Shown here in pieces: positions 23,001-63,781 of a stretch of 64,000 bases of DNA. Origin of the DNA: Ptychodera flava (lineage: Eukaryota; Hemichordata; Enteropneusta; Ptychoderidae). The stretch covers positions 12,209,441-12,273,440 of the forward strand of contig NC_091932.1 of NCBI RefSeq assembly GCF_041260155.1. The letters are read 5' to 3'. Position 1 is the first letter of the stretch. Every line of letters begins with the position of its first letter. The translations under genes and the position numbers were made by a program. Below the pieces are notes generated by a model. That model saw only the letters and a program-made list of their open reading frames with translations. It was not told where the DNA came from and ran no database searches.

Positions 23001-24037
23001 TCAAAGCAATGAATACATGGCTTAACTGGGCTTCGGATTGCCTAAGTGACAGTTCTGTCCATCAGCAGAACTTTATCTACCCAGGGTTCGTTCCGCGGCG
23101 ACATGGTGTTATGTTATATAGCCGTTGTAGCTTACAACAGCCCATACCAAAACGAAAACATCAGAAGATGCATGTTTTGCATTCAATCGTCATACTGACA
23201 AGAACAGAGATTTGTTAGCAATTTTTTTGCGATATAGGTTCTTATGTGTTCAAGCGATGCAGTTAGAGACGATGATTACATTTTTGCAAACACTAATATC
23301 ACATCTACATTGACATACTGTACAATAGATAGTAAAACACCACCAAATTTAAGTAATTTAAGTATGAGAGGGAGACTATGTAACGACCTTTTCCACTTGT
23401 GATCCACTTGCGATCGGAACATACACAAACGCCAGTGACATATACGCATAAACAAAGGTACAGAGTTTGACTTACTCTAAGATATATATAGCTGATTTAG
23501 TAGAAAGTATAAATTGAGTGTCTTTTGGTCACTTAAAAGTGCGTCAGAAGAGACAGAGAGGGAGGGACAGTGTCATATCAGGAAGGAATCAACAACATGG
23601 CAGTTTGGCTTTATTGTCAATAACTTAAGATGCATCTGTTGCACCAGATACTTCTCAACTAAAAGTGCTGTAAAATGTCACTTGTAAAAACTATATATAT
23701 AGTTACATTATCCTCCAGACGTAATACTAAGAATTTTCGCTGTTAGTAGTATATGTTTTTCTATCGTACGAAATTCCTAAAACAACAATAGAAAAGGCGA
23801 ACTTGCTACTGTAGACTGGCTTGCACAGACATAAGAAATCCGCCGTTTTTCTATTTTTATCTCATTGAGTTAATGCCAGTAGCTTGATTTTGCGCGAAAG
23901 AACGGTCTGGTTGGTTGGAGTGTCGAAATATGTCTTGAACACGAAAAACATCATAACACAATAAGCCACCTCGTTCCATTCGTAAAACCAACACTGCTCA
24001 TTAAAGTAAGCTTCCCTCTAATAAAGCAGAACGTTAC
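20059..24037 (-). other. 5' intron of gene 1, part near exon 1
   Basis: No gene recognised. The last 500 bp (about 23500-24037) align by landmarks with the ends of the gene 2 and gene 3 introns (CATTAAAGYAAG..TAATAAAG just before the donor), supporting a shared 5' leader. Short frames at 20338-20580, 21042-21248 and 23009-23218 look like chance. Confidence 0.5.
20905..21110 (+). repeat. Dispersed repeat, copy 2
   Basis: Partner of 17700-17910: GGAGGAAATCTGCGTGATAC near 20911, GGGAGAAG near 21032 and GTGGCGCTATTGTA near 21068. Confidence 0.5.
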
Positions 24038-24219
24038 CTGACTTCTTCGCTATTCAAAATGTTACACCAATGCCAAAAGCTGTGGTCACATTGTCGAAGA
24101 GCTTGCATGTAACACTTTTTGTTTCAGCTTAAGATTGTGGTGTTCGGCGGAATGTAGAGCCAGCAGTGACAATCACTACTTAGTTCCAAGGTACATAAAA
24201 GCGAAAATTTGCTACGTCA
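24038..24219 (-). promoter_or_regulatory. Promoter and exon 1 module, type A, probably for gene 1
   Basis: Read on the minus strand: a CRE-like site TGACGTAG (24212-24219), a TATA-like CTTTTATGT (24193-24201), then a leader that ends AGAAGTCAG followed by GTAACG, a good donor with its GT at 24036-24037. The gene 1 acceptor is 7.7 kb away, making an intron of about 7744 bp enlarged by the TIR element. The spacing of CRE, TATA-like stretch and donor matches the other modules. A start of transcription near 24170 is inferred from the TATA-like site. Confidence 0.6.
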
Positions 24220-25500
24220 CAGTTTTACGTGCATATGATCACGTACGCCAATCTTAATTACGGCTTTTATTTAGAAAAGTTGTTATGCCTATTCTCGTTT
24301 CAATCACAGCATATATATACTTTTCACAAAATGTATTGAACGTAAGTTAAACAAGGTACGCGTAAAGATCAGGACAATAAACTCGATAAGCTCATTAAAT
24401 GAGGAGAATGATACCGACTTTGATTCTAGTGATCTGATGCGCCCGCATTCTCCACCAAATATTGCACTTCAGGATTATTTACACTCAAGAATGAAGTACA
24501 TATGGAAGGATACGATACAGTATGACAATAAACTGGTCCAATAATCGTTTCGATTCAAGGTAATACATTACCAGGTCCATAGGACATTTGTGATTTACAA
24601 ATTTAAGTAGGACCATCTTGAACCACTGACAGTTAGTGGCGGTACCAGGTGTCCGGAATGGGTAAGTGTACCCTGCTAGCATGCTACACCGGCCAGGATT
24701 GGTCCAAAAATTGTCTAAATATTGTATGAAATGATACAGTATATGAATCACTGTATTAAGTCAAAGCCGGGAATGCTGTCGCTATAATCATTTGAGTGAT
24801 CGAGGTGTCATATTTGGCCACAATGTCATCATGTCGACTGTAGAACTTTGTGAAAGTCCTCACGAGTCTTTTTGATGTGTATCCCTGTCCCACCAGTTTT
24901 GATACCAATGAGTTCTGTCTCATTTGAAATTCAGCGTAGGAATCACATGCCCCTCAATATCTGAGAAGTTGAAACACGTACACACCATAAGCAGGTGCAG
25001 ATGGAATATTACTTGACAAGTGGGGATAATTTATGATTTCAAAATCTAAATCATCCCTTTGTCATACAGCTTAGTGTGTAGCCCATTAGTACCCACTTGT
25101 AGGAACAGATCAAGATATGAAGCTGAGTTCTTACCTTCGGTTGTTTCTTTGATTTTCAACTCTGAACGATATTTGAATGACAGTTTCTGCAAAGATCACA
25201 TCTTTTCTGTAAAGAGACGCCAGTGCAAATAAAGGGAAGATAGGATGTCCAAATTACGAAATCGCTAAAGACCATAGAAGGTTACTCTGTAGTCATATTA
25301 ACATGCTCTTAATATTTTCCAATACTCACTTCAGCATTGAAAATCACAGGAAAGCATGCATTGTCTATGCACTCAGGCACACTTACGACTTCCCTGTAGT
25401 GGGAATATGTTGTAAACATTCGTTTCGTTTTGTGAGATTAGAGATACCATGGCGGCTGTGGTATGAGTCATAAAGTGTCAACATCAAATATAGTAATCGA
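24220..25500. repeat. Duplicated distal promoter flank (type A)
   Basis: Carries the type A block GATCACGTACGCCAATC (24238-24254) with a CCAAT-like core. Landmarks CCACCAAATATTGCACTTC near 24452 and TTGTAAACATTCG near 25410 are shared with the flanks at 1-700 and 46000-46620. No gene seen. Confidence 0.55.
24640..24700 (-). repeat. Dispersed repeat, inverted relative to 62850-62900
   Basis: On the minus strand this reads GTGTAGCATGCTAGCAGGGT then CTTACCCATTCCGGACAC. Nearly the same 45-50 bases occur on the plus strand near 62850-62895. It interrupts the duplicated promoter flank and may be the tail of a retroposed element. Confidence 0.55.
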
Positions 25501-27160
25501 AAATAAGCCTATAAAAAGTTACATGTTCAAAATACAATTTGTGTGCAAAACAGATATTTGACATAAAAGGACAATTAAAGATTTCACATTGATGTACATA
25601 TACTGTATTTCCCAAGACAAATGATTTCTTTTAGGTTTCCCATTTATCATTTGTAACGTCATTATCTTGGAAGTCAACCTCGAAGGATCACTTTTAGGCA
25701 AGAGTTCAACTGGGCCATCGTACCTTAAATCAACGGGGAGGGGGGCATACCTCACAGATATCATATCAAATCCGATTCCGTAAGGACTTAGAGTTCGGAT
25801 TAGGGTTATTATTAGGGTAAACGTACATTGAAAGCATATTAATGTATTCAGACAGGATCACGCACAAAAAATTTACTGTACGCATATCGCGTGGACAGAA
25901 GGATGTATTGAAGATTATATGATACACTCATGATGATCATAATTACAGCATGCTACATCATATAATACTGAAATCGATCTCCCCTGTTTGCTTGACCTTT
26001 ATTTAAGTAAATACGAAATATGAAAATACCTTGTTAGGGAAAAATTATTTAATATTAGATGTTCCTTCTACCTTTATATCAATTTTCATTTTTCATTGAA
26101 AAAGATGCAAAGTAATACCAGACACAAACAATTCTGTATTGTATTCTTTTGGTACATGTTATTTTTGTGAACGTAACCCGGTTATTGAACCACCCGTTTA
26201 CGAGAGTGAGGATTTGGCCAGGTGGTTCTGGCTGTTGCTAATCCACTAGGTGACTGGCTGCCGTACCTTGTTCGTTCGAACCCTAATAAAACACCGTATT
26301 ATCTCGCATTGACGATGAATTTATACAAGCAGCAATAGCTGTTTGTTTCCAATGGTATAGAATTGCAGAGACTTGGCATTCAAGACGTCAAAAATTATAA
26401 TGAGAAACTTGTAACCTGGTCCATAAGAAAATAAAATCCATACACCAATGTACTTGATACCGAATGTCATTTCAAACTTGAGAACAAAATTGTGATGAAG
26501 ATTAAATTATTTGATCTCGTCTTGAGAAGAACCAGTGGGTATGATGGGAAATAGTTTCTGTTTCGAACCGAAGCTGTCAGTGATGAATTTGATGTCACCG
26601 GATGAAGGATATACTCTGCATGCACATTAGAGATGAAAGTTTTATCTTATCAATATCAATAGGCCAAACCCGGAATTCGAATCGGCCACGGTACAAACAA
26701 AGCCATGTGCGCAAACGCGCACAGACGTACGTGTATTTCCATACGCGTTCAGTACACATGAGGGTTTGTTTGTACCGGCATCACGTGATTATTTGGGCGT
26801 ACTGAGTATGTAGAACGGCGTACGCATCGCGTCCTTTTTATTCCGGAGTAGAACCATTGATACGAGAAATCGATTTACATAATGCGATATTTTTCAGAAG
26901 AGCAAGAGGTAACCTTCAGAATATTGTAGTTTGTAGAAGTTGTGAGGATCAGTCCAACTATAGTCAGTAGTCAGTAGTCACAGAAGAAAAAGTAGCCGGA
27001 CTTGACAATATAAAACTTGGCTTTGGAAAACCAACTCAAGTCCCAATGCATTTTAAAAGGTTGGCTTTTTTATTGCTAAAAACCCGACGTTTCAGCTGTG
27101 CAACAGGTTCGGGATACTTGGACAAGGGCTTGAAGCCCATTCTGCTGTCCCCACACGAGC
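25501..27160. other. Intergenic, no gene seen
   Basis: Nothing recognisable except the tRNA-like head near 26205-26290. The frames at 27036-27228 on both strands are chance overlaps at the edge of pseudogene P1. Confidence 0.45.
26205..26290 (+). repeat. tRNA-like (SINE head) candidate
   Basis: TTTGGCCAGGTGGTTCTGG resembles an A-box region and CGTTCGAACCC an RNA polymerase III B-box. GGTGACTGGCTGCCGTAC is shared with 8450-8475. The variable region is too long for a functional tRNA, so a tRNA-derived SINE is likelier. Confidence 0.4.
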
Positions 27161-27164
27161 GTTT

Positions 27165-28092
27165 AAGAGTTTCGGGGCTTTTTTCTGTCTTGGCTAGTTT
27201 GTCGATAAAGTTCACCATTCTCTTTTAAGACAGGAGTTGTGCGGCACTTCTACGCTGTATCACAGTTTCGGTATGACTGAATACACCGTGCGTGTGCATT
27301 CCAAGTCATGAAGTTTAATCTTGGCTGTTTTCAGCATTGTACCATAATCAGGCTTTATCTCTTTAACAAGCCTGTGCTATTCCCTTTTTATCATCATCAT
27401 AAGCTCGCCCGCAGTCCCTCATATCCGCCGTTCTTCTTCAAGGCAACGTTTCTTGTCCCTTTTGTCACCTACTCCACAGATTTACATACACTGCTTTTTA
27501 CGTCTTTGATTCTCAATTTTCTTAACATTTCTGTAACTTTTTGAGGTAGTCACCAGCCGCATCCTCCAGCTTTTTATTGGGCTACTTAGGAACGTGATGT
27601 TCCAGGACAGTGCATTCTAAAAAGACAGGATTTCGCGAGTGTCGAGGTAAAACTTGACCACATTCTCGGATGACTGCTGCAGTAAACTGTTGAGTCTAGT
27701 GGGATATCAGATAACATTGCTTCGGGTACTCATTGTATGTCACACCTTTGTAGTTCCTAGTTGCTAGGACAGTCGTGTGAGTCTTTGTGCATGATTGCCA
27801 CAAATCATAACTACAATCAACACATTTGTGAGGTAGGGCATTTTCTTCACAACCGTCACGACTAGACATTCTTTGACATACGATAGCAAAAAGCGGATAA
27901 AAAGATACTTTTCAGTTACTTATTAAAGGCACTTTTCGCGATCCCTGGGATCGCCTTTGTTCTAGTCTGTAAGAGGATTATGGAGGTGTGATAGCCTTTT
28001 GTTTTCCATTGAAATTGTAATCTGGTGGTTAAATTTTCTGATGAGACAATCTGGTGCCAACAAAGGCCTTTAAAGCAATCAACAGACAAAGC
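27165..28092 (-). pseudogene. TRIM-NHL pseudogene P1 (B-boxes and coiled coil only)
   Basis: Aligns by eye with gene 1 from about 15262 to 16075: the coiled-coil segment near 27170-27540, B-box 2 near 27570-27670 and B-box 1 near 27770-27870. It then runs into the linker before B-box 1. RING, filamin and NHL parts are missing and the frame is broken many times by small insertions and deletions. The B-box part looks closest to gene 2. The linker (CAATCAACAGACAAAG near 28077) is of the gene 4 type, shared with P3. It is interrupted by a 151 bp TTAA-flanked insertion. Confidence 0.85.
27923..28073. mobile_element. Small TTAA-flanked MITE inside P1
   Basis: The element begins TTAAAGGCAC and ends GGCCTTTAA. 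Removing it restores alignment of P1 with P3: P1 reads TTTTCAGTTACTTA before it and GCAATCAACAGACA after it, while P3 reads TTTTCAACTGCTTAACCCAATCAACAGACA with no insert. TTAA targets are typical of piggyBac and Kolobok groups. An internal hairpin (GCGATCC-CTG-GGATCGC) lies at 27938-27954. Confidence 0.65.
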
Positions 28093-28289
28093 AGAGTAGC
28101 GTATAGGGAAAGATACATACCGTTATTTAATTATATTAACATATCAACTCAGGTTGGCAATCAATTGCTTAAGCTATAATCGCGTTCAGAGATTGTGCTG
28201 CGGACTTGGGTTGCATTACGTCATCTGTTTTGGTTGAAATTAACTTTTTTCGCAAAATCCACCGGCACAAAAGCCCGTTGTGCAAAGCA

Positions 28290-28985
28290 AACATATACTT
28301 AAATAGTGCAGTTTTATTTCCATCATTTATATCTATAGGAAATAATGACCAGAAAGTAAAACTCGTTTAAACCTTTGTTAGTTTTTATTGTCTATTTATG
28401 AGTATGTTACTTGTTTTCTTTTTGCGTGTTGCAACGCACAGCCTTCTTTCAAGGCCTTAAACAGAGTTCCGTGTATTTTCCAATTATTCACGAATAGATA
28501 ATATCAAGGTAGTATCATCTGTGTTAGGTTATGTATTTTGGAAATAATGGCTTCAAATAATATTATTAAGGACCCTATCACCAAAACATCCTTACAGATG
28601 ATCTTAGCAACTAACCCACAATCGATAATGCCTTTTCCTCAAGCCCCCGAGGGGTGTCTTCCTATATTTGCATATGCATAATGTGCCGCCTGAGTTAAAA
28701 ACGTCTACCTATGTGTTCGCCATCAAGTGACCAATAGTAAGTATTTTAGTTTCCTCTCTTATTTACCAACATAAAGGGCAATATGATGAAAAAACTGACA
28801 ATTGTACAGGTTTATTTTGAAAAGTAACCTGTTTTGATGGCTTATATTCGCATTCCTTCAAATTGGCGTAGTCCCAGCATTTAACGTTTTCATCATTCCA
28901 CATCAAAAATACCGAAATCGTCTCTAGACACAATTGATGGGGAAGATGGTTCAATGCTTGAGTGCTACAAAATTGACACATTTGT
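28290..28985 (-). repeat. Graveyard unit A (duplicated intron-like segment)
   Basis: Shared with unit B (31790-34360 minus its insert) and unit C (34920-35460). Landmarks are ATTTATATCTATAGGAAA, TTATGAGTATGTTACTTG, GATAATGCCTT, CCCAGCATTTAACG and AAAATTGACA. Its first part also matches sequence about 550 bp upstream of the gene 3 ATG (ATCTACAGGAAACAATG near 52650), so it descends from TRIM 5' intron sequence. Confidence 0.65.
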
Positions 28986-29366
28986 AGCAATAAATCTTGA
29001 CTGAGTTCTTGGAATGACTACTGCAGTAAGTTGACATTTTCTTCACAACCTTCACAGAACCCAGGTACCTCATCACAACTGGGCATTGTTAGATTTATGA
29101 TATTGAGCAGAGAGCCGATAAAAAACTACTTTTCAACTGCTTAGCCCCGTCAACAGACAGCAAGTATGGTGTTTTACAAGTATGGCAAACCAGCATTTTG
29201 CCTTTCCCTAAAATGTCTTAAGACACCCTAGCCCCCCCCCCCCCAATTTATATGATAGCATGGTAGCATCCTACGACTTTTATGCTGTTCACAACATACT
29301 CGATTGGTAATCTTAACCAATTTAGCAAGAGTTTTCTGTGAGGTGGGGACGGGTTACGTTTGCCAT
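28985..29366 (-). pseudogene. TRIM-NHL pseudogene P2 (RING end)
   Basis: Contains the decayed start of a TRIM gene: the old ATG at 29364-29366, the RING region near 29170-29330 and the B-box 1 Cys cluster near 29030-29060. Everything after B-box 1 is lost. A C-rich slip tract at 29233-29245 sits in the RING. Its linker (TCAACAGACAGC near 29150) matches gene 4 and P3 rather than genes 1-3, marking it as type B. Confidence 0.8.
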
Positions 29367-29829
29367 TACATTGAACTTGTGACAACTGCTTTGAAGATTG
29401 AAGAAAATACAAGTTATAATTGAAATATTACATTTTATTAGTTTTGAGATATGCTTTAAACACATTTGATCATTCCGTCTCGACCGATTAATACTCACAT
29501 GGTAAAAATTGGGTTGGCCTGAACTTGGAGAATTAAATGACCATGGTGTTTTTTATTTATCCTTAACTACACATATTAATGTATTTTCATTATTTGTTTT
29601 ATAGGACCGGGTAAAATGTAATATCCTGTCCTAGTCCAATATAATGACGAAATACCAAGAGTTCGACTTGTCGACATTGTTTGCATATGCCACAATACAA
29701 AATTTCAAATGTCAGCAACAGCATCACATACCTTGCACAATGATTTGTGTCGGCAAGACTAATTGGTTGATATTGTACCATATATATGACTGGTGAATAA
29801 GCAATTTACTTTTTTGTAAGCAAAAAAAA

Positions 29830-31640
29830 TTAATCACTATGAAAAGTGACAGCCAATGTCCCTAGACGGCGTCGTTCTAGAATTACTGGTTTTCGGATAA
29901 GTATTTCTTTGCCTAATCGAACACGGTCAGTTTATGCACCGTCCCTCCACCCACCGGTCTGGAAACAGCTCCTCTTTCTTTGTTCCGATGCGCGTTACGG
30001 GTAAACGTATCAATTACAAAAAAACCGTGAATCTCTTACACCCTAGAGGTGACAAGTACGTGAATTTGCATGAAAAGTATGCTAATTTTAACCAAAATGA
30101 CCAGAATACACTGCGCTATTCACTACAGCGATTTTGCTAATAAACTTGTCGATATTGTGACACAAACGTTTCGATATTGAGGTGGGAGGCTCAAGGTTCT
30201 TTCACATTTTAATACATAAAAATTTATTTCTTTTCAAAGCTTTTGCGTACTCTTTTGGCCTCCAAAACAGATTGAGCTTGCAAGGAATCGCTGCTAGACA
30301 ACTGTACGCGACTGTACCCCTAAGTCTTAAAACGGATAAACAAAGACACAAACAAAAGCGCTAGCCCAAAAATCATCGTTTCGGACAAAAAACATCAAAA
30401 TAAGTGTCTCACCATTCGTAAAATATCGTAAATTTAATGTTCAATGACTGAAATATGCTGAGTGGGATTAGATTCAAATGTGGAAGGGAGAAAAAACTTC
30501 GTGACCGAAGAACCAACGTGTCGCGATCAAAGTTTCAAAATGGCGTCGCGGCAAACTCAACAGCATTCCGAAACATCGAAAGCATAAATTTCGAGTAATG
30601 TTAGGATGAAAATCGATTCTAGAAATAAACTTTTAGGAAAGTATACACCTCGCAAGTCAAATTTACGGGGAATTTTACGGGTTGATTGGCAATTTTCGTT
30701 GTTCAAAAAACGCGTGGCCGACGTATGGTGGCCGCCATCTTGATTTTTAACACAAATGCATCGTCGAAAACTCTGGCGTTTTCTACAACAGAACAGAGTA
30801 AACGACAAAAAAATGCATACTACCAATTTAAAGATCCCCATCGCTGATTGATCACGCCAAATTCGTTTCGATTTATCATTATTTCTACAAGTGAAAGGGG
30901 GGAAAACTTTCGTACTATAAGGTGCCTCTTCCTACCTAGCGAGGTCAAATTTGGTGGGCGAAAATTCGACGGAAAAACACGGAATATCATAGACGAAAAT
31001 CTAAAAGAAATTACTCTCAATAAACACAGTTTCTCTGTTGTAGCAGAAATCCTGGCTATGGTAACATTTGCATCAGTAACGCGCTTCGTACCAACGGTAG
31101 AGCAATTAACACCTTTAAACAATAGCGCACGTGTCGCGTTTCAGACCGGTGGGTGGAGGGACGGTGGTTTATGTTACATTTGCTTTATCGCTGTATACAA
31201 AAATGTATTTCAACCGTTTAGCACCTTGGCGAATGGGGAAGATATAGGATACTGCATATGACTGCGGCCTTAGAAAGCACTCAGTTTCGAGAGAGTGGAT
31301 ATTATACGACGGTATAATCTTTAAAAAAACATTTCAAAACTATTATTGATGGCCAAAAGCCGATGATACTCAAGTATTTACTCTGCCTAATCAAACACGG
31401 TCAGTTTCTGTGTTACATTTTATCTATTCTTGTCTGTACAAATGTTTTTAAACTGTTTAATTAATTTATTGTACATGAAAGAAACCGGACACAGCATACA
31501 ACACGCTTGGTGTCGACAATGGATAACCGATCGCGGTCAAAAGGCACTAAATCTTTATTAGCTATTTATTATATGGCAGTATAATCTAAGAGAACATTTC
31601 AAAAAATATTTATAATGATCAAAATCCGACGACAGGAACA
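29830..31640. repeat. Tandem repeat of about 270 bp, one unit split by a transposon
   Basis: CAAACACGGTCAGTTTCTGT at 31390 repeats CGAACACGGTCAGTTT at 29918. GGTATAATCT..AACATTTCAAAA near 31310 repeats at about 31580, a spacing of roughly 271 bp. The first unit is split at 29936/31167 by the 1230 bp element; the second is intact and serves as its empty site. Confidence 0.7.
29937..31166. mobile_element. 1230 bp TIR element with 7 bp target duplication
   Basis: Perfect 25 bp terminal inverted repeats (29937-29961 and 31142-31166) begin CACCGTCCCTCCACCC. They are flanked by identical GTTTATG copies at 29930-29936 and 31167-31173. A related sequence near 31384-31445 represents the uninterrupted target. 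Internal frames (up to 137 codons) show no transposase motif, so it is probably non-autonomous. A 7 bp duplication does not fit the commonest superfamilies. Dada-type elements use 6-7 bp, but this assignment is only a guess. Confidence 0.9.
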
Positions 31641-31891
31641 GTATTAAAAAACATAAAAAAACTGAAGCACAATACATTTTGATGCTCTGCCGAAATCTAA
31701 AAGTCCGCAAATGATTTCATACGCCATTGCACGGAAGTAGTATCTTTTTACCCCGTTTTCATTGTCGTGCACAACAAATTATACTGAAACATTGCAATTT
31801 TATTGACATCATTTATATCTACAGGAAACAACGACGAGAACTAAAACTCGTTTTAACCTTTTTTAGTTTTTATGCATTTTTATGAGTATGT

Positions 31892-31940
31892 CACGTGTGT
31901 AAACACGTGGGCTATTGTCATAGCGATGTCTGTCTGTCTG

Positions 31941-31971
<31 letters not shown>

Positions 31972-33528
31972 TAGTGTGTGTGTGTGTTGTGTGTGTGTGT
32001 GTGTGTCTGTCTGTCTGTCTGTTTACACGATAACTCAAAAACGCCTGAACGGATTCAAGTCAGATTTGGTACACAGGTACCATGTGCTACTTGCAAGAAC
32101 TGATTAGATTTTGGTTAGTGTGGCTTGCATATTAATGAAGTTATGCAATATCGTTTTTTTCCATACAATGGTTTCCCTATGGCGATGGTAATGACAGTGT
32201 AGACATATATCAAGAAATACTGCACAAAATTTCATGAAACTTTTCACAGATGACAATCTAAGAACATTATGATGATACTGTGAGTGTCATGTCAATTATC
32301 TGCTCATTTGCATATATAATGAACTTTTGTTATTAGTCATATAACTCCGATATAACTTCACCAAATGTGATGCAATCTGCTGCAGATACTGATCCGACTG
32401 ATATCTAACTGTAGTGTAAAGCATTAAGTAGCGTGAAATTAATTAAGGGTTCATTTGCATATTTAATGAACTTTGTAATTAGGTATATAACTCTGAAATT
32501 ACGGCACCCAAGTCAGTGAAATTGGGTACAGATATTGTTTTGATAAATATCTAATTGTACTGAGAAGCATTTGGCAGTGTCAAGTTAACAAATAGGTCAT
32601 TTGCATATTTTATGAAGTTTAGTAATTAGCGATATAACTGCAAAATAACTGCACCAAATGTTATGAAATCTGCTGCAGATACTGATCCGACAGATATCTA
32701 ATTGTGGTGTAGAGCATTTAGTTATGTGAAGTTAATTAGAGGTTCATTTGCATATTTAATGAACTTTGTAATTAGTGATATTACTCCAAAATTACAGCGT
32801 TAAATTTGATGAAACTTGCTACAGATGTGGATCTGATAAATATCCAATTGTACTGAGAAGCATTGACCACTGTCAAGTTAATAATTAGCTCATTTGCATA
32901 TTCCATGAAGTCTTATAATTAGTCATATAACTCCGAAATAACTGCATCAAATGTGATGAAAACTGCTGCACATACTGATACGACAGATATCTAACTGTGT
33001 TGTAAAGCATTTAGTAGTGTAAAGTTAATTAAGGTTTCATTTGCATATTTAAATAACTTTGTAATTAGGTATATAACTCTGAAATTTCGGCACTAAAATT
33101 TGGTGAAACGTGCCACAGATATTGATTTGATAAATATTTAATTGTGCTATGAATCATTGAACAGTGTCAAGCACTTTTATGGATGGACCGTGTGTCAAAT
33201 TAATGTAGGGTTTATTTGCATATTTAATGAACTTTGTAATAAGTGACATTACTCTAAAATTACAGCATTAAATTAAATAAAACGTGCTACAAATGTTGAT
33301 CTGATGGATATCTAATTGTCCATAAAGCATTGAGCAGTATCAAGTTAATTGACAGCTCACTTGCATATTAAATAAAGTTTTGTAATTCGTGATTTAACTC
33401 TGAGAGTACTGTGCGAAGTTTAAAAAAAGCCTGCTACATATAGTGATAACATATATCTTATTGTTCTGTGAAGCGTACTACTATTAATTAAACTGTTGTA
33501 AACACGTGAGCATATTCAGTTCATATGC
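31892..33528. mobile_element. 1637 bp inserted repeat block with an array of about 146 bp units
   Basis: The block is bounded by the 15 bp direct repeat TTTTTATGAGTATGT (31877-31891 and 33529-33543). That is the single-copy sequence of units A and C, so the block is an insertion. It opens with TGTAAACACGTGGGC and (TG)n, then ATAACTCAAAAACGCCTGAA, and continues as about nine units containing TTTGCATATTTAATGAA. Occurrences near 32131, 32308, 32456, 32603, 32748, 32893, 33038, 33217 and 33362 give a spacing mostly of 145-148 bp. Some units alternate GAAC and GAAG, hinting at a two-unit higher-order repeat. TGTAAACACGTGAGC recurs at the far end. Confidence 0.85.
31927..32022. repeat. (TG)n / (TGTC)n microsatellite
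   Basis: TCTG units flank two TG runs at the left end of the inserted block. Confidence 0.95.
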
Positions 33529-34360
33529 TTTTTATGAGTATGTTACCTGTTTTCTTTTCTTGTGTGATGCAACGCACAGTCCTCTTTCAAAATCTTAAAA
33601 TAATGAAATTATCGTGTATTTTCAATTTATTCACAAATAGATAATGTCAACGCAATATCATCTGTGTTAGGTTATGCATTTTGAAATAATGGCTACAAAC
33701 GCAATATTGTTCTGGATACGGATGATCCTAGCAACTACACCATACTCGATAATGCCTTCCCCTCAAGCACCGGGAGAGAGGAGATCTCCCTACTCGATAA
33801 TGCCTTCCCCTCAAGCACCGGGAGAGAGGAGATCTCCCTATATTTGCATATTCATGGTGTGCTGTCCCAGTTGAAAACATCTACCCATGTATTCGCAATC
33901 AATTTACCCATGGCACGTATTTTGGTCAAAATAATCCCAATAGTTACGGAGTTCATCTTAATGCCTTATGAAATTATAAAACGTCAAAAATGTTCACTAG
34001 ACTAGAATAGTATCATGTAAATCGTGACTGACAAGGTCTTGGCAAAATTTGGCAATATCTTCTGATCATTTGGAATCAATACTAAGCGGGAAGATTTTCC
34101 TAAGTTAACGGAATATTTACTCTCTTATCGACCGATGTAAAAGGCGATGTGATGACAAACTGACCATTGTACAGGTTTTTCTTTTGAAAAAGTGAACCAT
34201 TTAGGCGGCTTATATTCGCGCTCCTTCCTATTGGATCAGCCCCAGGATACAACGTTTTCATCCTTACACATCAAAAATGCCCGAAATCCTGAATCGCCAA
34301 TGGATACAATTGCTGAGGAAGATGCAATGCTTAGGCAACTATAAAATTGACATAGTTGTC
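33529..34360 (-). repeat. Graveyard unit B, remainder after the insertion
   Basis: Continues the unit A-like segment: TTATGAGTATGTTACCTG, GTGATGCAACGCACAG, TCGATAATGCCTTCCCC, CAACGTTTTCATCCTTAC and AAAATTGACA. It ends where pseudogene P3 begins. No function seen. Confidence 0.6.
33743..33838. repeat. Exact 48 bp tandem duplication
   Basis: The segment starting TACTCGATAATGCC occurs twice without a mismatch (33743-33790 and 33791-33838). Units A and C have it once, so the duplication is young. Confidence 0.97.
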
Positions 34361-34880
34361 GCAGCAAAACTTGCCTACGTTCTCGAGATGACAGCTGCAG
34401 TAAATTGTGGAGTCTAGAAGAATATCAGATAACGTTGCTTCGTGGTACTTACTGTCACAACTTTGTGGTTTCTGGTGGCTGGGGCACTTTTGTTAGGCTT
34501 CGTGCATGATCGGCAGAAATCTAAACTACAATGAAGGAATGTGGGAAATGGCATTTTCTTCACAACCTTCACAGAGCCAAGGTTTCTCAAAACGACTGGA
34601 AATTATTTGATATACGATATTGAGCAGAGATCTGATAAAAACCTACTTTTCAACTGCTTAACCCAATCAACAGACAGCGGAAATGGCGTCTTACAAGTAC
34701 GACGAACCATTGCTGTTGCCTTTCCCACAAATGTCGCCATACGCCCCCACAAATTATATGATGGCATGGTGGCATCCTAGGATTTTTGTGCTGTTCACAA
34801 CAGATTACACAGGACATGAAATCTTAACCAATTTTATTAAGAACTTTCTGCGAGTAGGGACGGGCTAGGCAACGCCGACA
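34360..34880 (-). pseudogene. TRIM-NHL pseudogene P3 (RING to B-box 2)
   Basis: Decayed 5' part of a TRIM gene: RING near 34690-34850, linker near 34600-34680, B-box 1 near 34470-34570 and the start of B-box 2 near 34370-34420. Its end toward the old start (GGGACGGGCTAGGCAACG) no longer shows a clean ATG and acceptor. The RING/linker (CAATCAACAGACAGCGG) resembles gene 4, while the segment between the B-boxes (GAATATCAGATAACGTTGC) resembles gene 2. Coiled coil, filamin and NHL parts are missing and the frame is broken repeatedly. Confidence 0.85.
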
Positions 34881-34919
34881 ATGTACATTATGAGCAAGTA
34901 TATACAGAACAGTTAGCTC

Positions 34920-36938: not shown

Positions 36939-37116
36939 CTTATATCGTTGCCTGTCAAAATGTTACATCAATACCAAAGAATGTCACTTCATCGCAGGTT
37001 GAATGTAAAACACTTTAGATTCAGCTTCGGTTTGGTGGTGTAACTGTTACGTTAAGTCAACAGTGAAATTCGCCACTAACATTCCAGCTAAATATAACTG
37101 AAATTCAATGACGTCA
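36939..37116 (-). promoter_or_regulatory. Orphan promoter and exon 1 module, type B
   Basis: Minus strand: a perfect CRE TGACGTCA at 37109-37116, a TATA-like GTTATATTTAG at 37088-37098, then a leader ending GATATAAG followed by GTAAGTAC, a strong donor with GT at 36937-36938. The nearest coding sequence downstream is the decayed copy P3, so this promoter has lost its gene. Beyond the CRE it shares AATCAGTATTTCA, and inside it AACTGAAATT, with the gene 4 module. Whether it still fires is unknown. Confidence 0.6.
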
Positions 37117-47880: not shown

Positions 47881-47881
47881 A

Positions 47882-49840: not shown

Positions 49841-49841
49841 A

Positions 49842-52085
49842 CTATTGTGCAAAGACTTTAATGCAGTCCCTGTCATGATCAACCACTGCCACTCTACAGG
49901 GAACATCATTGGTGAGGGTAATGCCATGTGGTCTACAGAGTCCGTCTTCATCCATGTCGATACGAGATACGAATATACCACTGCTGGTGAATTTCTGAAC
50001 ACGTTTGTTTGTCACCTCAGTAATGTACAGATATCCGTCGCCATCGATGGCAAGACCCAAAGGCCCGCATAGTTGACCCTCGTCTGTACCATGGCTGCCG
50101 ATCGAACACAAAAACTCACAGTCTGCTGTGATCACCCATACACGACAATTATTAAAATCTGAAACAAATACCACCCCCTGATTACTTACAGCGACATATG
50201 CTGGTCCTCTGAACTGGCCACGCTTTGTGCCATACTTTCCAATGGATTTGATGTGCTGACCACCCCGTGTAAATTTCCGGACACAGTGACTGTTTTCCTT
50301 CTTTGTCCCTGCTAACTTGCCATCCCAATCCGTTACATATACAGTGCCGTCCAGAGGACTGATTGCAATTCCGTGAGGGTATTTTAGGTCTGCCTGACCA
50401 AAGAACCTGCATAATTGACCATTCTCATCACTGACAATCACTCGGCTGTTCCCCACATCTGTCATGAAGTATTCATTATCTGTTGATACTGCTATACAAC
50501 AGGGTCTGATTGGCTTCTTGAAATGCGAAAATGTAAAGGCTAATTTGAAATTTCCATCTTTGTCAATTATTTGTACTCTGTTGTTGTCCCTGTCACATAT
50601 GACCAAATCGCTGTGCCGGTTAATGGCTATACCCATCGGACCACTAAATTGACAAGTATCTTCGCCCGTTATACCGATATTCTTTATGAATCCTTTTGTT
50701 ATCATAATATCAAAGGGTGCCCCTGGTACTAATTCTCCAGCAATTGCCACTGTCACCCAATATATGCCTACCTCTCGGCCATGCACAGTTACTGTAAGTG
50801 TACCATCTTCATTGTCGAAAACGCCAAGGTCTTCCCATGATCCCTCTCGTTTTGCTAACTTTGCAGTGACTTCTTCATAAGGTATGACCAATTTTCCCAT
50901 GCTGTCCCTAGTCTTGATGATCACGTCAACTGAGCCACCGGTGAAAAGTTGTTTAGAAATATTTTCAACCGAACAGTGCTGTACACTCACTTTTGATTGC
51001 AGCATTCCAAGAATGCCTTGCTCTTCGATGTCACTCATGGCCTTGAATTTGACAATGTCTGGTGGTTTCAGCGCTGTTGTTTTTGCCATGGCCAATTTTT
51101 CGATGCTGTTCACCATCTCTTCCTTGGAAGACAGAAGCTGTGCGGCACTTCCATGCAATATCACAGTTTCGATGTGGCTACGTACACTGGAAATTTGACC
51201 ATATTTGAAGTTCAGTTCATCAATTTGCATCTCTGCTCTTTCAACTTTTGTCCCGTAAACTGTTTTTAACTCCTCGATCAGTCTGTGCTGTTCCTGTGTC
51301 ATCATCCTGACAATCTCGTCTGCCATCCCTCTTATACTCTGTTCTTCTTCACGGCAATGCTTCCTCAACTGATCTCTGTAGTCGTCTGCTACATATTTAC
51401 TTACCTCGCATCTCGCTTCCTTCACTCTTAGCTTCGCTAACATTTCCTTTAATTTCATGGTATAGTCGTCAGCTGCGTCTTGCAGCTTTCTATGGGAACA
51501 AGTGGGAACACAATGTTCAACGAAAGTGCATTCTAAACAGACGGGAACTTGGCAAGTGTCGCAGTAAAACTTGACCATACTTTTAGGGTGACTGCTGCAG
51601 TAAACCGTAGAATCAAGCAGAATGTCAGATAATTTTCCATCGCCGTACTCACTGTGTGCCACAACTTTGTGGTTTCTGGTTGCTGGAACCGTTTTATGTG
51701 GCTTAGTGCATGACTGACAAAAATTTAAACTACAATCAACACATCTGTGAGAGGCGGCATTTTCTCCACAACCTTCACAGACTCCGGGTATGTCATCACG
51801 ACCAGGCATTCCCTGATAAATGATGTCGAGCAGCGAACTAATAAAAAAGCTACTTTTTAGCTCTTCCACTCCGCCATGAGATAATTGACATGGTGTTTTA
51901 CAAGTTGGACAAACAAGCTCTTTTGCCTTTCCCATGAATGTCGTCAGACACTCCGCACAAAACGTGTGATGGCATGGCAGGATCTTGGGATTCTTGTACT
52001 GTTCAAGACAGATTGCACAAGATAGGAAATCTTCACCAATTTTACTCAGAATTTTCTGCGATTGGGCGCTGGTTAGCTTAGCCAT
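49842..52085 (-). CDS. TRIM-NHL protein 3 (TRIM2/3-like E3 ubiquitin ligase)
   Basis: 747 residues in one coding exon. RING C23-C62, B-box 1 C103-H139 and B-box 2 C163-H198 keep all zinc ligands. Then come the coiled coil (about 205-335), a filamin repeat whose strands differ from genes 1 and 2 (EDGTLTVTVHGREVGIYWV), and six NHL blades ending IKVFAQ. The start at 52085 (MAKLTSAQ) matches gene 2 (MAKLTRAN). An in-frame ATG eight codons upstream lies across the acceptor at 52108/52109. Likely a ubiquitin ligase of the TRIM2/3/71 type; target unknown. Its promoter module is about 2 kb upstream, the shortest leader intron of the four. Confidence 0.95.
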   Translation of the reverse strand: MAKLTSAQSQKILSKIGEDFLSCAICLEQYKNPKILPCHHTFCAECLTTFMGKAKELVCPTCKTPCQLSHGGVEELKSSFFISSLLDIIYQGMPGRDDIPGVCEGCGENAASHRCVDCSLNFCQSCTKPHKTVPATRNHKVVAHSEYGDGKLSDILLDSTVYCSSHPKSMVKFYCDTCQVPVCLECTFVEHCVPTCSHRKLQDAADDYTMKLKEMLAKLRVKEARCEVSKYVADDYRDQLRKHCREEEQSIRGMADEIVRMMTQEQHRLIEELKTVYGTKVERAEMQIDELNFKYGQISSVRSHIETVILHGSAAQLLSSKEEMVNSIEKLAMAKTTALKPPDIVKFKAMSDIEEQGILGMLQSKVSVQHCSVENISKQLFTGGSVDVIIKTRDSMGKLVIPYEEVTAKLAKREGSWEDLGVFDNEDGTLTVTVHGREVGIYWVTVAIAGELVPGAPFDIMITKGFIKNIGITGEDTCQFSGPMGIAINRHSDLVICDRDNNRVQIIDKDGNFKLAFTFSHFKKPIRPCCIAVSTDNEYFMTDVGNSRVIVSDENGQLCRFFGQADLKYPHGIAISPLDGTVYVTDWDGKLAGTKKENSHCVRKFTRGGQHIKSIGKYGTKRGQFRGPAYVAVSNQGVVFVSDFNNCRVWVITADCEFLCSIGSHGTDEGQLCGPLGLAIDGDGYLYITEVTNKRVQKFTSSGIFVSRIDMDEDGLCRPHGITLTNDVPCRVAVVDHDRDCIKVFAQ

Positions 52086-54060: not shown

Positions 54061-54091
54061 TACAGTATAACACAATAAAGTATGCCCTTAC

Positions 54092-54253
54092 CTGGCTCTT
54101 TCGTTCGGCAAAATGCTACACCATGTTGCTGCAAACCTTGCGTGTTGAACTTCTTGTTTCAGCCTAAGCTCGATGGTATTGTGTCAGGTAGTGTCAGTAG
54201 TGATATTCGCTACTTAGTTCCTACCTACATAACAACGAAATTTTGCGACGTCA
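54092..54253 (-). promoter_or_regulatory. Promoter and exon 1 module, type A, for gene 3
   Basis: Minus strand: CRE-like TGACGTCG at 54246-54253, a weak AT-rich GTTGTTATGTAGG at about 54223-54235 in the TATA position, then a leader ending AAAGAGCCAG followed by GTAAGGGC (GT at 54090-54091). CRE-to-donor distance is about 163 bp. Confidence 0.6.
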
Positions 54254-56423
54254 CAGTTTCGATGAGCATTTGATCACGTACGACAGCCATTATTGTGGCT
54301 AAGGAGAAGTTCACTTTTATGCTGAGGTATGATAGTGTTTATCGTTAAAATCACACTCTTTATGTTTTTCACAAAGTAAACTAAACGTCAATTAATCTAG
54401 CTGTGCGTCAGAGTCAGGAAAATGGACCTCATCAAGTCAGAAAAATGATTCTATCGGTGACTTTATCAATCAGAAGTACCCCGATTCTCCACTAAATAAT
54501 ACATCCTCGTTTACAACGTCGGGATCATACACACTCGGGAATGTTTTTCTCGAGGATTTGAGCTACAATGAAGTTAATATGAATGGATATGATAGAGCAC
54601 CGGTTCGTGAACAGTATTTCATTGCATGTGACAACAGGTACGATGTACAATGACTATCTCTGCATATATTACATCTTGTACTGTAAAAATGTGCCTGTGA
54701 ATTGCTGCTTGCAAATTGAGGAGAGTTGAAAAACGTTGAAGCTCATATAAGATACATTTCAAGGACATCGACATGCTCTTACATGTTTCGAATAGCCACT
54801 TCAGCACGGTAAATCAAATGCGTGCATGCATTATTCTTGCATCAATATCTCTTATAAAAAATGGCTTGAAAACTCTCTCATACTATATACTTTCATAAAG
54901 CACATAATGTAAAGTTTAGTATGATAGCAAAAGTTTCCTGGAAGGATGAAGTGATACATGTTTTGGTAAGAAAACCTTAATTGTTGTATTAACGATAAAA
55001 ATAATTCAGAACAAAGACTTTATGCTACTACTAGACTAGTATGGAACGCAATATATCATTTAAAACTAGAGTATGTGTAATAAAACGGCAATTCTGTTTT
55101 CATTATCTATTCTCATTAAGATAAGTAAAATTATATGACTTTTATTCAAAATGTAAGAATTTTATTGCCGAACAAATGGTTTTGAACAAAATACACTGTG
55201 GTATGTGCGACGCCATGTTACACGTTTGATATATTCCACAGAAAAATCTGAAAGCTGAAGGGGAGATTTACAAGACGTTTTTCCTTTTGATAGCTCTCGC
55301 GACCGGCTAACTGGTACGCATGCGCCACTACAGAAGGATAGGACAATATTCCTTGACCTCATAGTCGCCGTCGTTGCATTTCTACAGTGCTTAAGAATGT
55401 GTCATTACATGTCAAGGCCCAAACTTCAGTATTTTTTGAGTAATCAAGATTTGCAAACAATAAAGTTAACAAGATATTGCGATGGCTGTACAACTTAAAA
55501 TTCACATAAAAAGCCATCAATATGTCAATAGTTAGCAGTCATCATGACGTGTCAAGGACCACCATCCTAGCACAAAGTACGCTTGGTAGCCGGGCTCAGC
55601 GAACTCCCCCGCGGGCAGTGAGGCCATCAACCCATGTGGAAGAAGACTGAGTGTCTCACAAAATACCTACTATCAAAAGCCATGTACTATTACAGTAAAC
55701 TGCCACTTTCAAGTGAAATTGTACTTTCAATGCTTTTCTGCTCAGCCCTATTGTGATATCATACTCCTAGGTGATACGACACAGGAAATTAGTGATCTTG
55801 TGCCACATTGTTTGAATATATAAATATTTGTCAATAAAAATTGTCCGTACGCGGCGTGCAATTTATTGTCCACTGATGATTTCACGTCCAGACAAGAATT
55901 CATTTGTCAGCAGTAGTACAACTTTTGCTGTGTTTACATCGATGGTCAATTACAAGCTAAGCCCTTCATTGGTAAGTTGCATACTTATAATTATAGTATA
56001 TATCAGAGGACAAAGATAAAGACGACAGCGATACTGTTCATTGATACACTACCAAATGATTCAAATTAGTAAAACAATCAATTTACCTAGATTGTGGCTG
56101 TAAAGGGTAGCAGAGCTGGTCGCAAAAAAAAATTCTAATCGCACAACCACGTTCAGTGTAGTCTATGATGTCAATTCTAAAAAAAAATAATGAACATATG
56201 GAGAATATTTCGACTTCGAGATTTAATCATTACATATATATCACATAATCAGGAATACCATTGAAATGCGACCGTAGATTAGATACAAAAGTACCATCTT
56301 AACTTACTTGTTCAGCAGGGGCGAGGTCAATTTTGTTACTTTTAAGGGATAGAATACTTTCTTTGAGGGCTTTTCATTATTTATTTATTTATTTAAACTT
56401 TATAAATCGGGTAAACATCCTTA
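54254..56423. repeat. Distal promoter flank (type A), conserved block 3 and intergenic sequence
   Basis: TTTGATCACGTACGACAGCC near 54267, CCCCGATTCTCCACTAAAT near 54479 and AAATGCGTGCATGCATTA near 54815 are shared with the other flanks. The TTGTAAAC block is missing. Conserved block copy 3 is at 55830-56030. No protein-coding gene is supported. Confidence 0.5.
55830..56030 (+). repeat. Array-linked conserved block with donor-like site (copy 3)
   Basis: TGCAATTTATTGTCCACTGA near 55857 and GAATTCATTTGTCAGCAG near 55897 match copy 2. TTGGTAAGTTGCATA near 55974 matches the donor-like end of copy 1. ATATATCAGAGG closes it as in copy 2. Confidence 0.5.
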
Positions 56424-57968: not shown

Positions 57969-60212
57969 TTATTGTGCAAAGACTTTAATGCAGTCATTGT
58001 CGTGATCAGCTACGACCACTCTACAGGGAATATTATTGGTTAGGGCAATACCATGTGGTGAACGGAGTCCGTCCTTTTCTCCATCGATCCGAGATACGAA
58101 TATGCCGTTGCTAGTAAATTTCTGAACACGTTTGTTTGTGACCTCAGAAATGTACAGATACCCCTTCCAATCAATTGCAACACCCAAAGGTCCTCTTACG
58201 TGAACGTCCTCTCTACCGTAGCTGCCAATCAAACACAAAAACTCACAGTCTTCACTGATCACCCATATGCGATTATTGCTATAATCTGATACAAATGCCA
58301 TCCCTTGGCTATTTATAGCTAAATATGCAGGTCCTCTGAAATGTCCCCGCTTGGTGCCATACTTCCCAAAGGATCTGATGTACTGGCCATCCTTCGTGAA
58401 TTTCCGGACACAGTGGCTGTCTGCCTTGTCTGTTCCTGCAACCTTTGCATCCCAGTCTGTGACATATACAGTGTCATCTAAAGGACTAATTGCAATTCCA
58501 TGGGGGTATTTCAGTTCTGCATGACCAAAGAATTGATAGAATTGTCCATTCTCATCACTAACAACCACTCGATTGTTGCTTATGTCCGTAATTAAGTATT
58601 CATCATCTTTTGATATCGCTATACAACATGGTTCGATTGGCCTCTCGAACGATGTGAATGTAAAGGCTGATTTGAAATTCCCATCTATGTCAATTATTTG
58701 CACTCTGTTGTTGTCCTTGTCACATGTTACAAAATCACCGACCCGGTTAATGGCTATTCCCATTGGTCCATCAAATTGACACTTATCCTTCCCCTTTGTA
58801 CCAATTTCCCTTACGAATCCTTTCGTTATGAGAATGTCAAAGGGTGCCCCTGGTACCGGTTCTCCGGCAATTGTTACTGTCACTCGATATGTGCCTTCCA
58901 TTCGGCCATGTATAGTAACTGTATGTGTTCCGTTTTCATTGTTTAAAACATTGAGTTCTTCCAATAATCCCATTCGTTTTTCTAACTTGACGGTGATTTC
59001 TTCGTCGGGTATGACCAATTTTCCCGTGCTGTCCCTCGTCTTGATGATCAGGTCGACTGAGCCGCCAGTAAACAGCTGTTTAGGAGTACTTTCAATCAAA
59101 CAATGCTGTACACTCACTTTTGATTGCAGCATTCCTAGCATGCTACACTCTCCGATGTCGCACGTAGCCTTGAATTTTACAGTGTCTAGTGGTGTCAGTG
59201 CTGTTCTTTTCGCCATGGTCAATTTTTCGATTCGGTTCACTATCTCTCCCTTGGAAGACAGGAGCTGCGTGGCACTACCAAGCTGCATCACTGTTTCGAT
59301 GTGGCTGCATAAACTGGAGATGTTACCAAGTTTGAATTCCAATTCGTTAATTTGCGTTTCTGCCGTTTTTAGTTTTGTATCATAATCTGTCTTTAACTCT
59401 TCGATCAGTCTGTCTTGTTCCCTTCTTATCATCCTGGCAATCTTGTCTGCCGACCCTCTTATATTCTGTTCTTCTTCATGACAGTGTTTTCTCAGCTTGT
59501 CTCTGTTGTCGCCTGCTACATATTTACTGACATCACATCTCGCTTCTTTGACTTTCAACTTTGTCAACATATCTCTCAACGTCTTGACGCTGTCATCAGC
59601 CGCCTCCTGCAGCTTTCTATGAGAACATTTAGGAACACGATGTTCGATGACAATGCATTCTAAACAGACCGGAACTTGGCAAGTGTCACAGTAAAACTTG
59701 ACCACGTCCTCTGGATGACTGCTGCAGTAAAGTGTTGAGTCTATCCTAATATTCAATGATTTCGCTTCTTGGTACTCTTCGTTTGTAACAATTTTGTGGT
59801 TCTTAGTTGCTGGGACAGTCTTGTGAGGTTTCGTGCATGCTTGGCAGAAATCTAACCCACAATCAAGACATCTGTGAGAGGCGGCATTTTCTTCACAACC
59901 TTCACAGACTCCAGGTACTTCGTCACGACCAGGCGTTTCCTGACATACAATATCGAGCAGAGAGCTGATAAAATAACTACTTTTCAAATGCTTCACGCCA
60001 TCAGCAGACAGAGGACATGGTGTGTAACAAGTCGGACAAATCATCTCTGTTTCCTTTCCCACAAATGTTGTCAGGCACTTTTCACAAAATGTGTGGTGGC
60101 ATGGCAGGATCTTCGGTTTTTTGTACCGTTCAAAACAGATTGGACAGGATAGGAAACCTTCACCACTTTTACAAGGACTTGTCTGCGAGCAAATACGAGT
60201 AATTTCTGCCAT
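57969..60212 (-). CDS. TRIM-NHL protein 4 (TRIM2/3-like E3 ubiquitin ligase, type B)
   Basis: 747 residues in one coding exon. RING (CPICFERYKKPKILPCHHTF) C23-C62, B-box 1 C103-H139 and B-box 2 C163-H198 keep all ligands. Coiled coil about 205-335, filamin repeat about 365-465, six NHL blades ending IKVFAQ. It is the most divergent intact copy: the N-terminus is MAEITRICSQ rather than MAKLTxAxS, and the linker after the RING reads CPLSADGVKHLKSSYF instead of CQLSHGGVxELKSSFF. The linker DNA matches pseudogenes P2 and P3. The ATG at 60212 is the first in frame and lies 26 nt from the acceptor. Expected role is ubiquitin ligation with the NHL propeller as recognition surface; substrate unknown. 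Confidence 0.95.
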   Translation of the reverse strand: MAEITRICSQTSPCKSGEGFLSCPICFERYKKPKILPCHHTFCEKCLTTFVGKETEMICPTCYTPCPLSADGVKHLKSSYFISSLLDIVCQETPGRDEVPGVCEGCEENAASHRCLDCGLDFCQACTKPHKTVPATKNHKIVTNEEYQEAKSLNIRIDSTLYCSSHPEDVVKFYCDTCQVPVCLECIVIEHRVPKCSHRKLQEAADDSVKTLRDMLTKLKVKEARCDVSKYVAGDNRDKLRKHCHEEEQNIRGSADKIARMIRREQDRLIEELKTDYDTKLKTAETQINELEFKLGNISSLCSHIETVMQLGSATQLLSSKGEIVNRIEKLTMAKRTALTPLDTVKFKATCDIGECSMLGMLQSKVSVQHCLIESTPKQLFTGGSVDLIIKTRDSTGKLVIPDEEITVKLEKRMGLLEELNVLNNENGTHTVTIHGRMEGTYRVTVTIAGEPVPGAPFDILITKGFVREIGTKGKDKCQFDGPMGIAINRVGDFVTCDKDNNRVQIIDIDGNFKSAFTFTSFERPIEPCCIAISKDDEYLITDISNNRVVVSDENGQFYQFFGHAELKYPHGIAISPLDDTVYVTDWDAKVAGTDKADSHCVRKFTKDGQYIRSFGKYGTKRGHFRGPAYLAINSQGMAFVSDYSNNRIWVISEDCEFLCLIGSYGREDVHVRGPLGVAIDWKGYLYISEVTNKRVQKFTSNGIFVSRIDGEKDGLRSPHGIALTNNIPCRVVVADHDNDCIKVFAQ

Positions 60213-62900: not shown

Positions 62901-63287
62901 GTAAGTGTGGTGTGTGTGTTTGTGTGTGTGTGTGTTTTGGTTTTTGGTGATTTACTTGCCTTGAATGATAACGATTGCTCTTATCGATTTGATGTCATAT
63001 AAGCATACACAAACACCTTAGGTCGAGATAAACACAGGTCTTAACAAAGCCTATTTTACGTAGACAAGATAAAATACTTTTCATTGATCAGTGTAGTAAA
63101 GTCGTAGGGAAAAGAAAACAATGCATGAACACAAAATGCCAGAAAAGAACGACAAGGTATCTCTGTACAACTTTCCAACTTCACGTTTTAAAAACTATTG
63201 AGTGAGTATCGCGATCTTCCTTTGTGATATTTAGGATTTCCACTGTACCCGTAATATTTTTTCAAACAAAGCAAAATCAAATAGAAA

Positions 63288-63371
63288 ATCATCATCATCA
63301 CCACCATCAACACCATCACCACCATCACCACCACCACCACCACCAACACCAACAACAACAACAACAACAAG
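63288..63371. repeat. (ATC)n/(ACC)n/(ACA)n compound microsatellite
   Basis: A run of triplets drifting from ATC to ACC to ACA. Confidence 0.95.
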
Positions 63372-63595
63372 AATGAAAAGGACTCAATAACGCAAAGCGG
63401 TTACTTCTAATCGGCTTGTGTGCGGATGGGGATAAAGTATTTTCGTCCTATGAAGTGAATTCCGTCAGCTCGATATTTTTAGAGTAAAACAAGTTGGTTA
63501 TTAAAATTGTCCACTATATCAAGAACGTGAGGCCCAGGAGTTAAACTGACAGTGTTCATGAAAGTAACCTTTTCCACAATAAAGTTCTAACTTAC

Positions 63596-63781
63596 CTGAT
63601 TTATTTCTCAGACAGTATGCCACACCAATACCGGAGGATGCAGTCAAGTGATAAAATCGATATTAATTACTGAGTTTCAGCTTCAGCTTGTAGCTATAAA
63701 GGCGTCTGTTGTAAAGGACATAAAGCAGTGATATTCGCCGATTAGTAGCCAGCTGGCTGTAACTGAAATTTGGTGACATCA
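63596..63781 (-). promoter_or_regulatory. Promoter and exon 1 module, type B, for gene 4
   Basis: CRE-like TGACATCA on the plus strand at 63774-63781 (one change from TGACGTCA). The segment CTGTAACTGAAATTTGG beside it matches the orphan module at 37.1 kb. The leader ends GAAATAAATCAG followed by GTAAGTTAG (GT at 63594-63595), a strong donor. Beyond the CRE lies GGCCAATCAGTATTTC with a CCAAT box. CRE-to-donor distance is about 187 bp. No clear TATA box. Confidence 0.6.

What the first reader, a model, noticed from the sequence alone, without database searches (positions are those of the whole stretch)
24036..63781. A repeated promoter/exon-1 module drives each array member
Five complete modules (24.04-24.22, 36.94-37.12, 45.79-45.96, 54.09-54.25, 63.59-63.78 kb) and one cut by the window start share, on the minus strand, a CRE-like site, an AT-rich or TATA-like stretch, and a splice donor 163-187 bp downstream. 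Each intact gene has a matching acceptor 22-26 nt before its ATG. The donor and acceptor positions are seen directly; joint use is inferred. A CRE would make the cluster responsive to CREB/ATF signalling as a block, unusual for a TRIM expansion.
Basis: partly seen in the sequence, partly recalled or inferred. Interest (0 to 1): 0.75.

Follow-up and report, generated by a model that had tools for sequence, protein, structure and literature searches.

The report
Inherited promoters of duplicated TRIM genes
Each copy in this row of duplicated animal-type TRIM genes carries its own inherited stretch that looks like a promoter and a short non-coding first exon, which is ordinary for tandem duplicates; that the whole row answers to CREB signalling is not shown.

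Summary
Five homologous 5' modules (a sixth is cut by the window start) lie one per unit on the minus strand of a tandem TRIM-NHL array; leave-one-out profiles recover each at E 2.6e-37 to 1.8e-18. Their donors rank 1, 2, 3, 46 and 61 of 3906 GT sites, and acceptor-like sites lie 22-27 nt before all four intact start codons. I add an initiator-like TCA[AC]T 52 nt after the CRE-like site in four of five modules, 50 in the fifth, and a further shared block upstream. Best reading: a non-coding exon 1 behind a proximal bZIP-site, weak-TATA, initiator promoter, copied with each gene by tandem duplication. CREB control as a block is weakly supported. The only perfect TGACGTCA belongs to a unit whose gene is broken; the module of one intact gene has neither a TGACG half-site nor a TATA-like stretch; and the modules descend from one ancestor, so one inherited site is all that needs explaining. 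No RNA data, relatives or organism name were available. New member of a known kind.

The parts
24031..24240 (-). module of the 16 kb gene: TGACGTAG at 24219, CTTTTATG TATA-like, initiator-like A at 24167, exon 1 of 130 nt, donor CAG|GTAACG
36934..37137 (-). module of the broken unit: perfect TGACGTCA at 37116, TTATATTTA, initiator-like A at 37064, exon 1 of 126 nt, donor AAG|GTAAGT
45786..45982 (-). module of the 41 kb gene: TGACGTCG at 45961, TTTTATC, initiator-like A at 45911, exon 1 of 119 nt, donor CAG|GTAATG
54085..54275 (-). module of the 52 kb gene: TGACGTCG at 54253, TGTTATG, initiator-like A at 54201, exon 1 of 110 nt, donor CAG|GTAAGG
63589..63802 (-). module of the 60 kb gene: TGATGTCA at 63781 (no TGACG half-site), no TATA-like stretch, initiator-like A at 63729, exon 1 of 134 nt, donor CAG|GTAAGT
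1..39 (-). sixth module, cut by the window start: TGACGTCG at 13
14031..16271 (-). intact single-exon TRIM-NHL coding sequence (746 aa); acceptor at 16297 or 16293
39623..41866 (-). intact single-exon TRIM-NHL coding sequence; acceptor at 41889
49842..52085 (-). intact single-exon TRIM-NHL coding sequence; acceptor at 52112
57969..60212 (-). intact single-exon TRIM-NHL coding sequence (747 aa); acceptor at 60238
27162..34901 (-). three broken TRIM pieces (34.9-34.3, 29.4-28.8, 27.9-27.2 kb) downstream of the 37 kb module; each has in-frame stops in some of its tblastn matches, and no match reaches beyond residue 364
46364..46752 (-). distal upstream block, no long open frame seen; counterparts at 380-763, 25186-25552, 37485-37896 and 54659-54951

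Best explanation
Each unit of this tandem array is a TRIM-NHL gene with an uninterrupted coding sequence and its own RNA polymerase II promoter and non-coding first exon, copied together when the units duplicated. Inferred working: a bZIP-type (CRE/ATF-like) site about 52 nt upstream, a weak TATA-like stretch near -31 and a TCA[AC]T initiator set the start. A leader exon of 110-134 nt ends in a strong donor and is spliced over 2.0-7.7 kb to an acceptor 22-27 nt before the ATG. Shown: homology, motif positions, spacing, donor and acceptor quality. Inferred: start site, splicing, binding of any factor, co-expression. The bZIP site probably serves as a general proximal promoter element; its decay in one copy suggests that regulation has begun to diverge between members.
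For: Leave-one-out recovery of all five modules, minus strand, one per unit. Donors rank 1, 2, 3, 46 and 61 of 3906 GT sites on that strand; the best acceptor of each intact gene ranks 2, 14, 17 and 21 of 3480 AG sites. A profile of the acceptor region, made from the four intact genes, also finds the doubled copy at 16522-16430 (E 3.1e-17), the broken copy at 29420-29347 (E 4.3e-5) and weakly 52881-52818 (E 0.011). CRE-like T to initiator-like A is 52 nt in 4 of 5 modules and 50 in the fifth, while exon 1 is 110 to 134 nt. Aligned gap runs: 2 in 66 columns around CRE to initiator, 31 in 257 upstream, 17 in 155 in exon 1. The three separate best conserved 6-mers are the donor, an exon 1 motif and TGACGT. 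A distal block is shared by five units, as whole-unit duplication predicts.
Against: Substitution identity of the core (0.58-0.82, ten pairs) is not clearly above fourfold-site identity of the genes (0.61-0.70, six pairs), so constraint rests on motif clustering and indels. The first 53 intron columns have as few gap runs (2) as the core. Other non-coding stretches are also shared by some units at about 70-75% (one search was cut in the output). TCA[AC]T occurs 2.9 times per kb on this strand and I picked it after seeing the alignment. The best module tree of the four units with intact genes joins the 46 and 63 kb modules (support 64), whereas the coding tree is (16 kb, 41 kb)(52 kb, 60 kb) with support 100: co-duplication is not confirmed by trees and weakly contradicted. 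Splice weights were recalled, not trained on this organism. No transcript data.
Confidence: 0.85

Rival explanations
1. CREB/ATF signalling switches the whole cluster on as a block through the shared CRE (an addition to the best explanation, not exclusive of it).
For: TGACGT in 5 of 6 modules at a proximal place (-52 or -50 from the initiator-like A), and within the best conserved 12-column window of the island (max by shuffling P 0.0044). PMC3671974 (passages) reports CREB binding enriched from 500 bp upstream to 200 bp downstream of start sites.
Against: The 60 kb gene's module has TGATGTCA and no TATA-like stretch; the 16 kb gene's has only a half-site; the perfect site belongs to the broken unit. 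Octamers within one mismatch occur 36 times in 64 kb; TGACGT occurs 35 times against about 27 expected. PMC3671974 (section 5 part 1) cites studies in which CREB binds a large share of promoters not induced by cAMP, and finds TATA boxes only weakly tied to responsive targets (passage). Other bZIP proteins bind similar sites (recalled).
Confidence: 0.12
2. The module is a leftover of duplication with no present function; similarity is only shared ancestry.
For: Core identity is close to that of fourfold sites; one module is well preserved although its gene is broken.
Against: Intact coding genes need a promoter (general knowledge); all five donors rank in the best 61 of 3906; clustering of invariant 6-mers P 0.002; nearby intron and far upstream sequence aligns worse across the five units.
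Confidence: 0.07
3. The module is a 3' control element or insulator of the neighbour that lies upstream of it rather than the promoter of the gene downstream.
For: Modules also lie 2.5-3.9 kb past the stop codon of the intact genes ending at 39623, 49842 and 57969 (by subtraction).
Against: The donor points to the downstream gene and acceptors sit before each ATG; for the module at the window start the next stop codon upstream is 14 kb away.
Confidence: 0.03
4. The module is a dispersed mobile element that happened to land near each gene.
For: It is repeated.
Against: One copy per unit, all minus strand, at the same relative place, none elsewhere in the window at E below 1.9, and shared sequence continues past the edges.
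Confidence: 0.02

Closest known systems
Ly49 gene family cis-regulation (mouse; PMC11156856, abstract and outline seen)
   Same: A recently expanded tandem family with proximal control elements in different states among members, explained there by loss of element activity in some lineages; there some genes are also cross-regulated by elements of other members.
   Different: Receptors, not TRIM ligases; there epigenome data show activity, here only sequence. In that paper CRE means cis-regulatory element, not cAMP response element.
TRIM class VII / subfamily C genes (TRIM2, TRIM3, TRIM71; PMC3503706, passages seen)
   Same: RING, B-box, filamin and NHL domains; solved relatives include Drosophila Thin, TRIM71, TRIM2 and TRIM3.
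   Different: A tandem array of single-exon coding sequences; of the 60 solved chains shown of 107 matched, none covers the whole protein.
CRE-containing proximal promoters bound by CREB (PMC3671974, passages and section 5 part 1 seen)
   Same: TGACGTCA within one mismatch in 5 of 6 modules, half-site TGACG in 5 of 6 (not the same five), close to the inferred start.
   Different: No binding or cAMP response known here; one module lacks the half-site, another has only the half-site.

Membership tests
TRIM-NHL (class VII / subfamily C) | RING domain | tested here: met
   PF00097 and PF13445 above cut-off in both proteins scanned, 2 of the 4 intact genes
TRIM-NHL (class VII / subfamily C) | B-box | tested here: met
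   PF00643 above cut-off, two stretches, in 2 of 2 scanned
TRIM-NHL (class VII / subfamily C) | coiled coil | not tested
   no coiled-coil prediction was run
TRIM-NHL (class VII / subfamily C) | filamin and NHL repeats | tested here: met
   PF00630 and PF01436 above cut-off in 2 of 2 scanned; NHL structures of Thin, TRIM71, TRIM2 and TRIM3 match the 60 kb protein, the one searched
CRE promoter regulated by CREB/ATF | TGACGTCA or TGACG half-site near the start | tested here: inconclusive
   half-site in 5 of 6 modules, missing in the 63 kb one; octamer within one mismatch in 5 of 6; start site only inferred
CRE promoter regulated by CREB/ATF | cAMP response and CREB occupancy | not testable with these tools
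   needs ChIP and stimulation
TATA/initiator core promoter | TATA-like box about 30 nt before an initiator | tested here: inconclusive
   weak TATA-like, by eye, in 4 of 5; TCA[AC]T in 5 of 5 at 50-52 nt from the CRE-like site; no start site data
5' UTR intron with non-coding exon 1 | strong donor and an acceptor before the ATG | tested here: met
   5 of 5 donors and 4 of 4 intact genes, with splice weights recalled from memory
5' UTR intron with non-coding exon 1 | observed junctions | not testable with these tools
   no RNA data

The most novel reading that the evidence does not exclude
The 37 kb module, the best preserved by motif (perfect TGACGTCA, best TATA-like stretch by eye, third-ranked donor) although its own gene is broken, is kept as a live orphan promoter: it makes an alternative leader spliced about 20.6 kb onto the 16 kb gene, or a non-coding RNA, and acts as a shared control element of the array, while the individual promoters decay at different rates. 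Cross-regulation between members is on record for Ly49 (PMC11156856, abstract).
Probability: 0.08. Interest if true: 0.45.

Novelty: new member of a known kind. Interest (0 to 1): 0.22.

Why it matters
It gives a testable gene model (exon 1, intron, start) for a tandem TRIM-NHL array that gene finding from open frames would begin at the ATG, and a small natural series of related promoters in different states of decay. Block CREB control would be of interest for how such expansions are regulated, but it is not shown.

Tried and rejected
Relatives: the 60 kb gene's protein against viral contigs (1 pattern match, none confirmed), and the alignment of all four proteins against genome contigs (29, none confirmed) and viral contigs (149, none confirmed). 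So no cross-species test of the modules was possible. The window's own genome is not held. No Rfam match at gathering threshold and no tRNA.

Trees: the best module tree has support 64 and differs from the coding tree, so co-duplication versus exchange between units is left open (the 37 kb module was left out because its gene is broken).

IRF-like half-site AANNGAAA (recalled motif), read on the opposite strand at -39: 3 of 5 modules, absent in two, against about 0.1 expected per 60 bp; not claimed. Coding exon 1 or a shared uORF: exon 1 of the four units with intact genes was printed; by eye its ATGs are not at shared places, so I set this aside without a formal test. The tiling search was cut in the output; I used only the part shown. 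Stop-to-stop frames of 90 aa or more were listed but those outside the TRIM genes were not searched for domains.

Papers: searches; two returned none. Among the rows listed in 18 (20 of 34), 22 (15 of 98) and 26 (9 of 9) I saw, from title and abstract start, no paper on a CRE-driven TRIM array; that is no proof that none exists.
Full report
What is there. The window looks eukaryotic (intact TRIM genes; GC 0.379, CpG observed/expected 0.81); no genome is held and the organism is unknown. On the minus strand lie four intact, single-exon TRIM genes. The two scanned carry RING, B-box, filamin and NHL domains, and the 60 kb protein matches solved NHL structures of Drosophila Thin, TRIM71, TRIM2 and TRIM3. 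Three broken TRIM pieces lie at 34.9-34.3, 29.4-28.8 and 27.9-27.2 kb. Pairwise, the intact genes are 68-76% identical in protein and 61-70% at fourfold sites.

Check of the modules. The five modules align. Profiles built from four find the fifth at E 2.6e-37 to 1.8e-18; the next best hit is the cut copy at the window start, and all other hits have E 1.9 or more. CRE-like octamers begin at 24219, 37116, 45961, 54253, 63781 and 13. Two corrections: the last exon base of the 37 kb module is 36939, and the better acceptor of the 52 kb gene is 52112.

More than shared ancestry alone. In the 531-column island the best separate 6-mers are AGGTAA (donor), GCTGAA (exon 1) and TGACGT. Three separate peaks at that level against 0.28 in shuffled columns gives P 0.002. 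The shuffle breaks up any neighbour effects, so the P value is a guide only. The CRE octamer as a whole ranks 18 of 524 eight-column windows; its last two bases vary.

Promoter geometry. A TCA[AC]T initiator-like site lies 52 nt after the first CRE base in four modules and 50 in the fifth; a TATA-like stretch around -31 is seen, by eye, in four of five. Gap runs: 2 in 66 columns there, 31 in 257 upstream, 17 in 155 in exon 1, 2 in the 53 intron columns. The last number means that low indel density is not unique to the core. The initiator was picked after seeing the alignment, and TCA[AC]T occurs 2.9 times per kb on the strand.

Splicing. With textbook weights recalled from memory, the donors rank 1, 2, 3, 46 and 61 of 3906 GT sites and the best acceptors 2, 14, 17 and 21 of 3480 AG sites. 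Introns would be 2.0 to 7.7 kb. The region before the ATG of the 16 kb gene is tandemly duplicated at 91%; the acceptor profile finds that second copy, the broken copy at 29.4 kb, and weakly (E 0.011) a stretch at 52.8 kb.

Wider unit. A second block lies 0.37-1.33 kb upstream of the CRE-like site in five units (the 63 kb unit runs off the window). Its profile scores them at E 4.8e-103 to 2.5e-57, but they are the sequences it was built from; a sixth, partial match lies at 2771-2710 (E 1.2e-5). Other non-coding stretches, such as 16909-17142 against 52394-52627 (73%), are shared by fewer units.

Constraint. Core substitution identity (0.58-0.82 over ten pairs) is near fourfold identity (0.61-0.70 over six pairs). 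I therefore do not claim a slow rate, only preserved motifs and spacing. The module tree (support 64) does not agree with the firm coding tree, which leaves room for exchange between units.

CREB. By the rule of PMC3671974 (passages) an octamer within one mismatch is a full CRE and TGACG a half CRE. Five of six modules pass as full by count (the 63 kb one by TGATGTCA, which has no half-site), and the 24 kb one is half only. The window holds 36 such octamers, 21 with an intact half-site, modules included. The perfect site belongs to a broken unit. The same paper (section 5 part 1) cites studies in which CREB binds a large share of promoters not induced by cAMP. So a bZIP-type site is likely part of the ancestral promoter; block control by CREB is a guess.

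Known kind. Tandem families whose members differ in proximal control elements are known, for example Ly49 (PMC11156856, abstract and outline). PMC3503706 (passages) notes rapid tandem expansions among animal TRIM genes.

Noticed in passing
380-763, 25186-25552, 37485-37896, 46364-46752, 54659-54951, minus strand: A shared block upstream of each of five modules, not named in the finding; possible distal promoter or enhancer. A partial sixth match at 2771-2710 (E 1.2e-5).
   Followed up: partly
16286-16428 and 16434-16576: Tandem duplicate (91%) of the acceptor region before the 16 kb gene.
   Followed up: partly
60328-60657: Imperfect palindrome (82% self-complementary match) within the presumed intron of the 60 kb gene; possibly a small inverted-repeat element.
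   Followed up: no
32283-33474 and 56574-56999: Internal repeats, satellite-like, between TRIM pieces and units.
   Followed up: no
24130, 37027, 45873, 54165, 63683 (first base), minus strand: Exon 1 motif AAGCTGAAAC (exact in 3 of 5, one change in the other two), GCTGAA invariant in all five modules; role unknown.
   Followed up: partly
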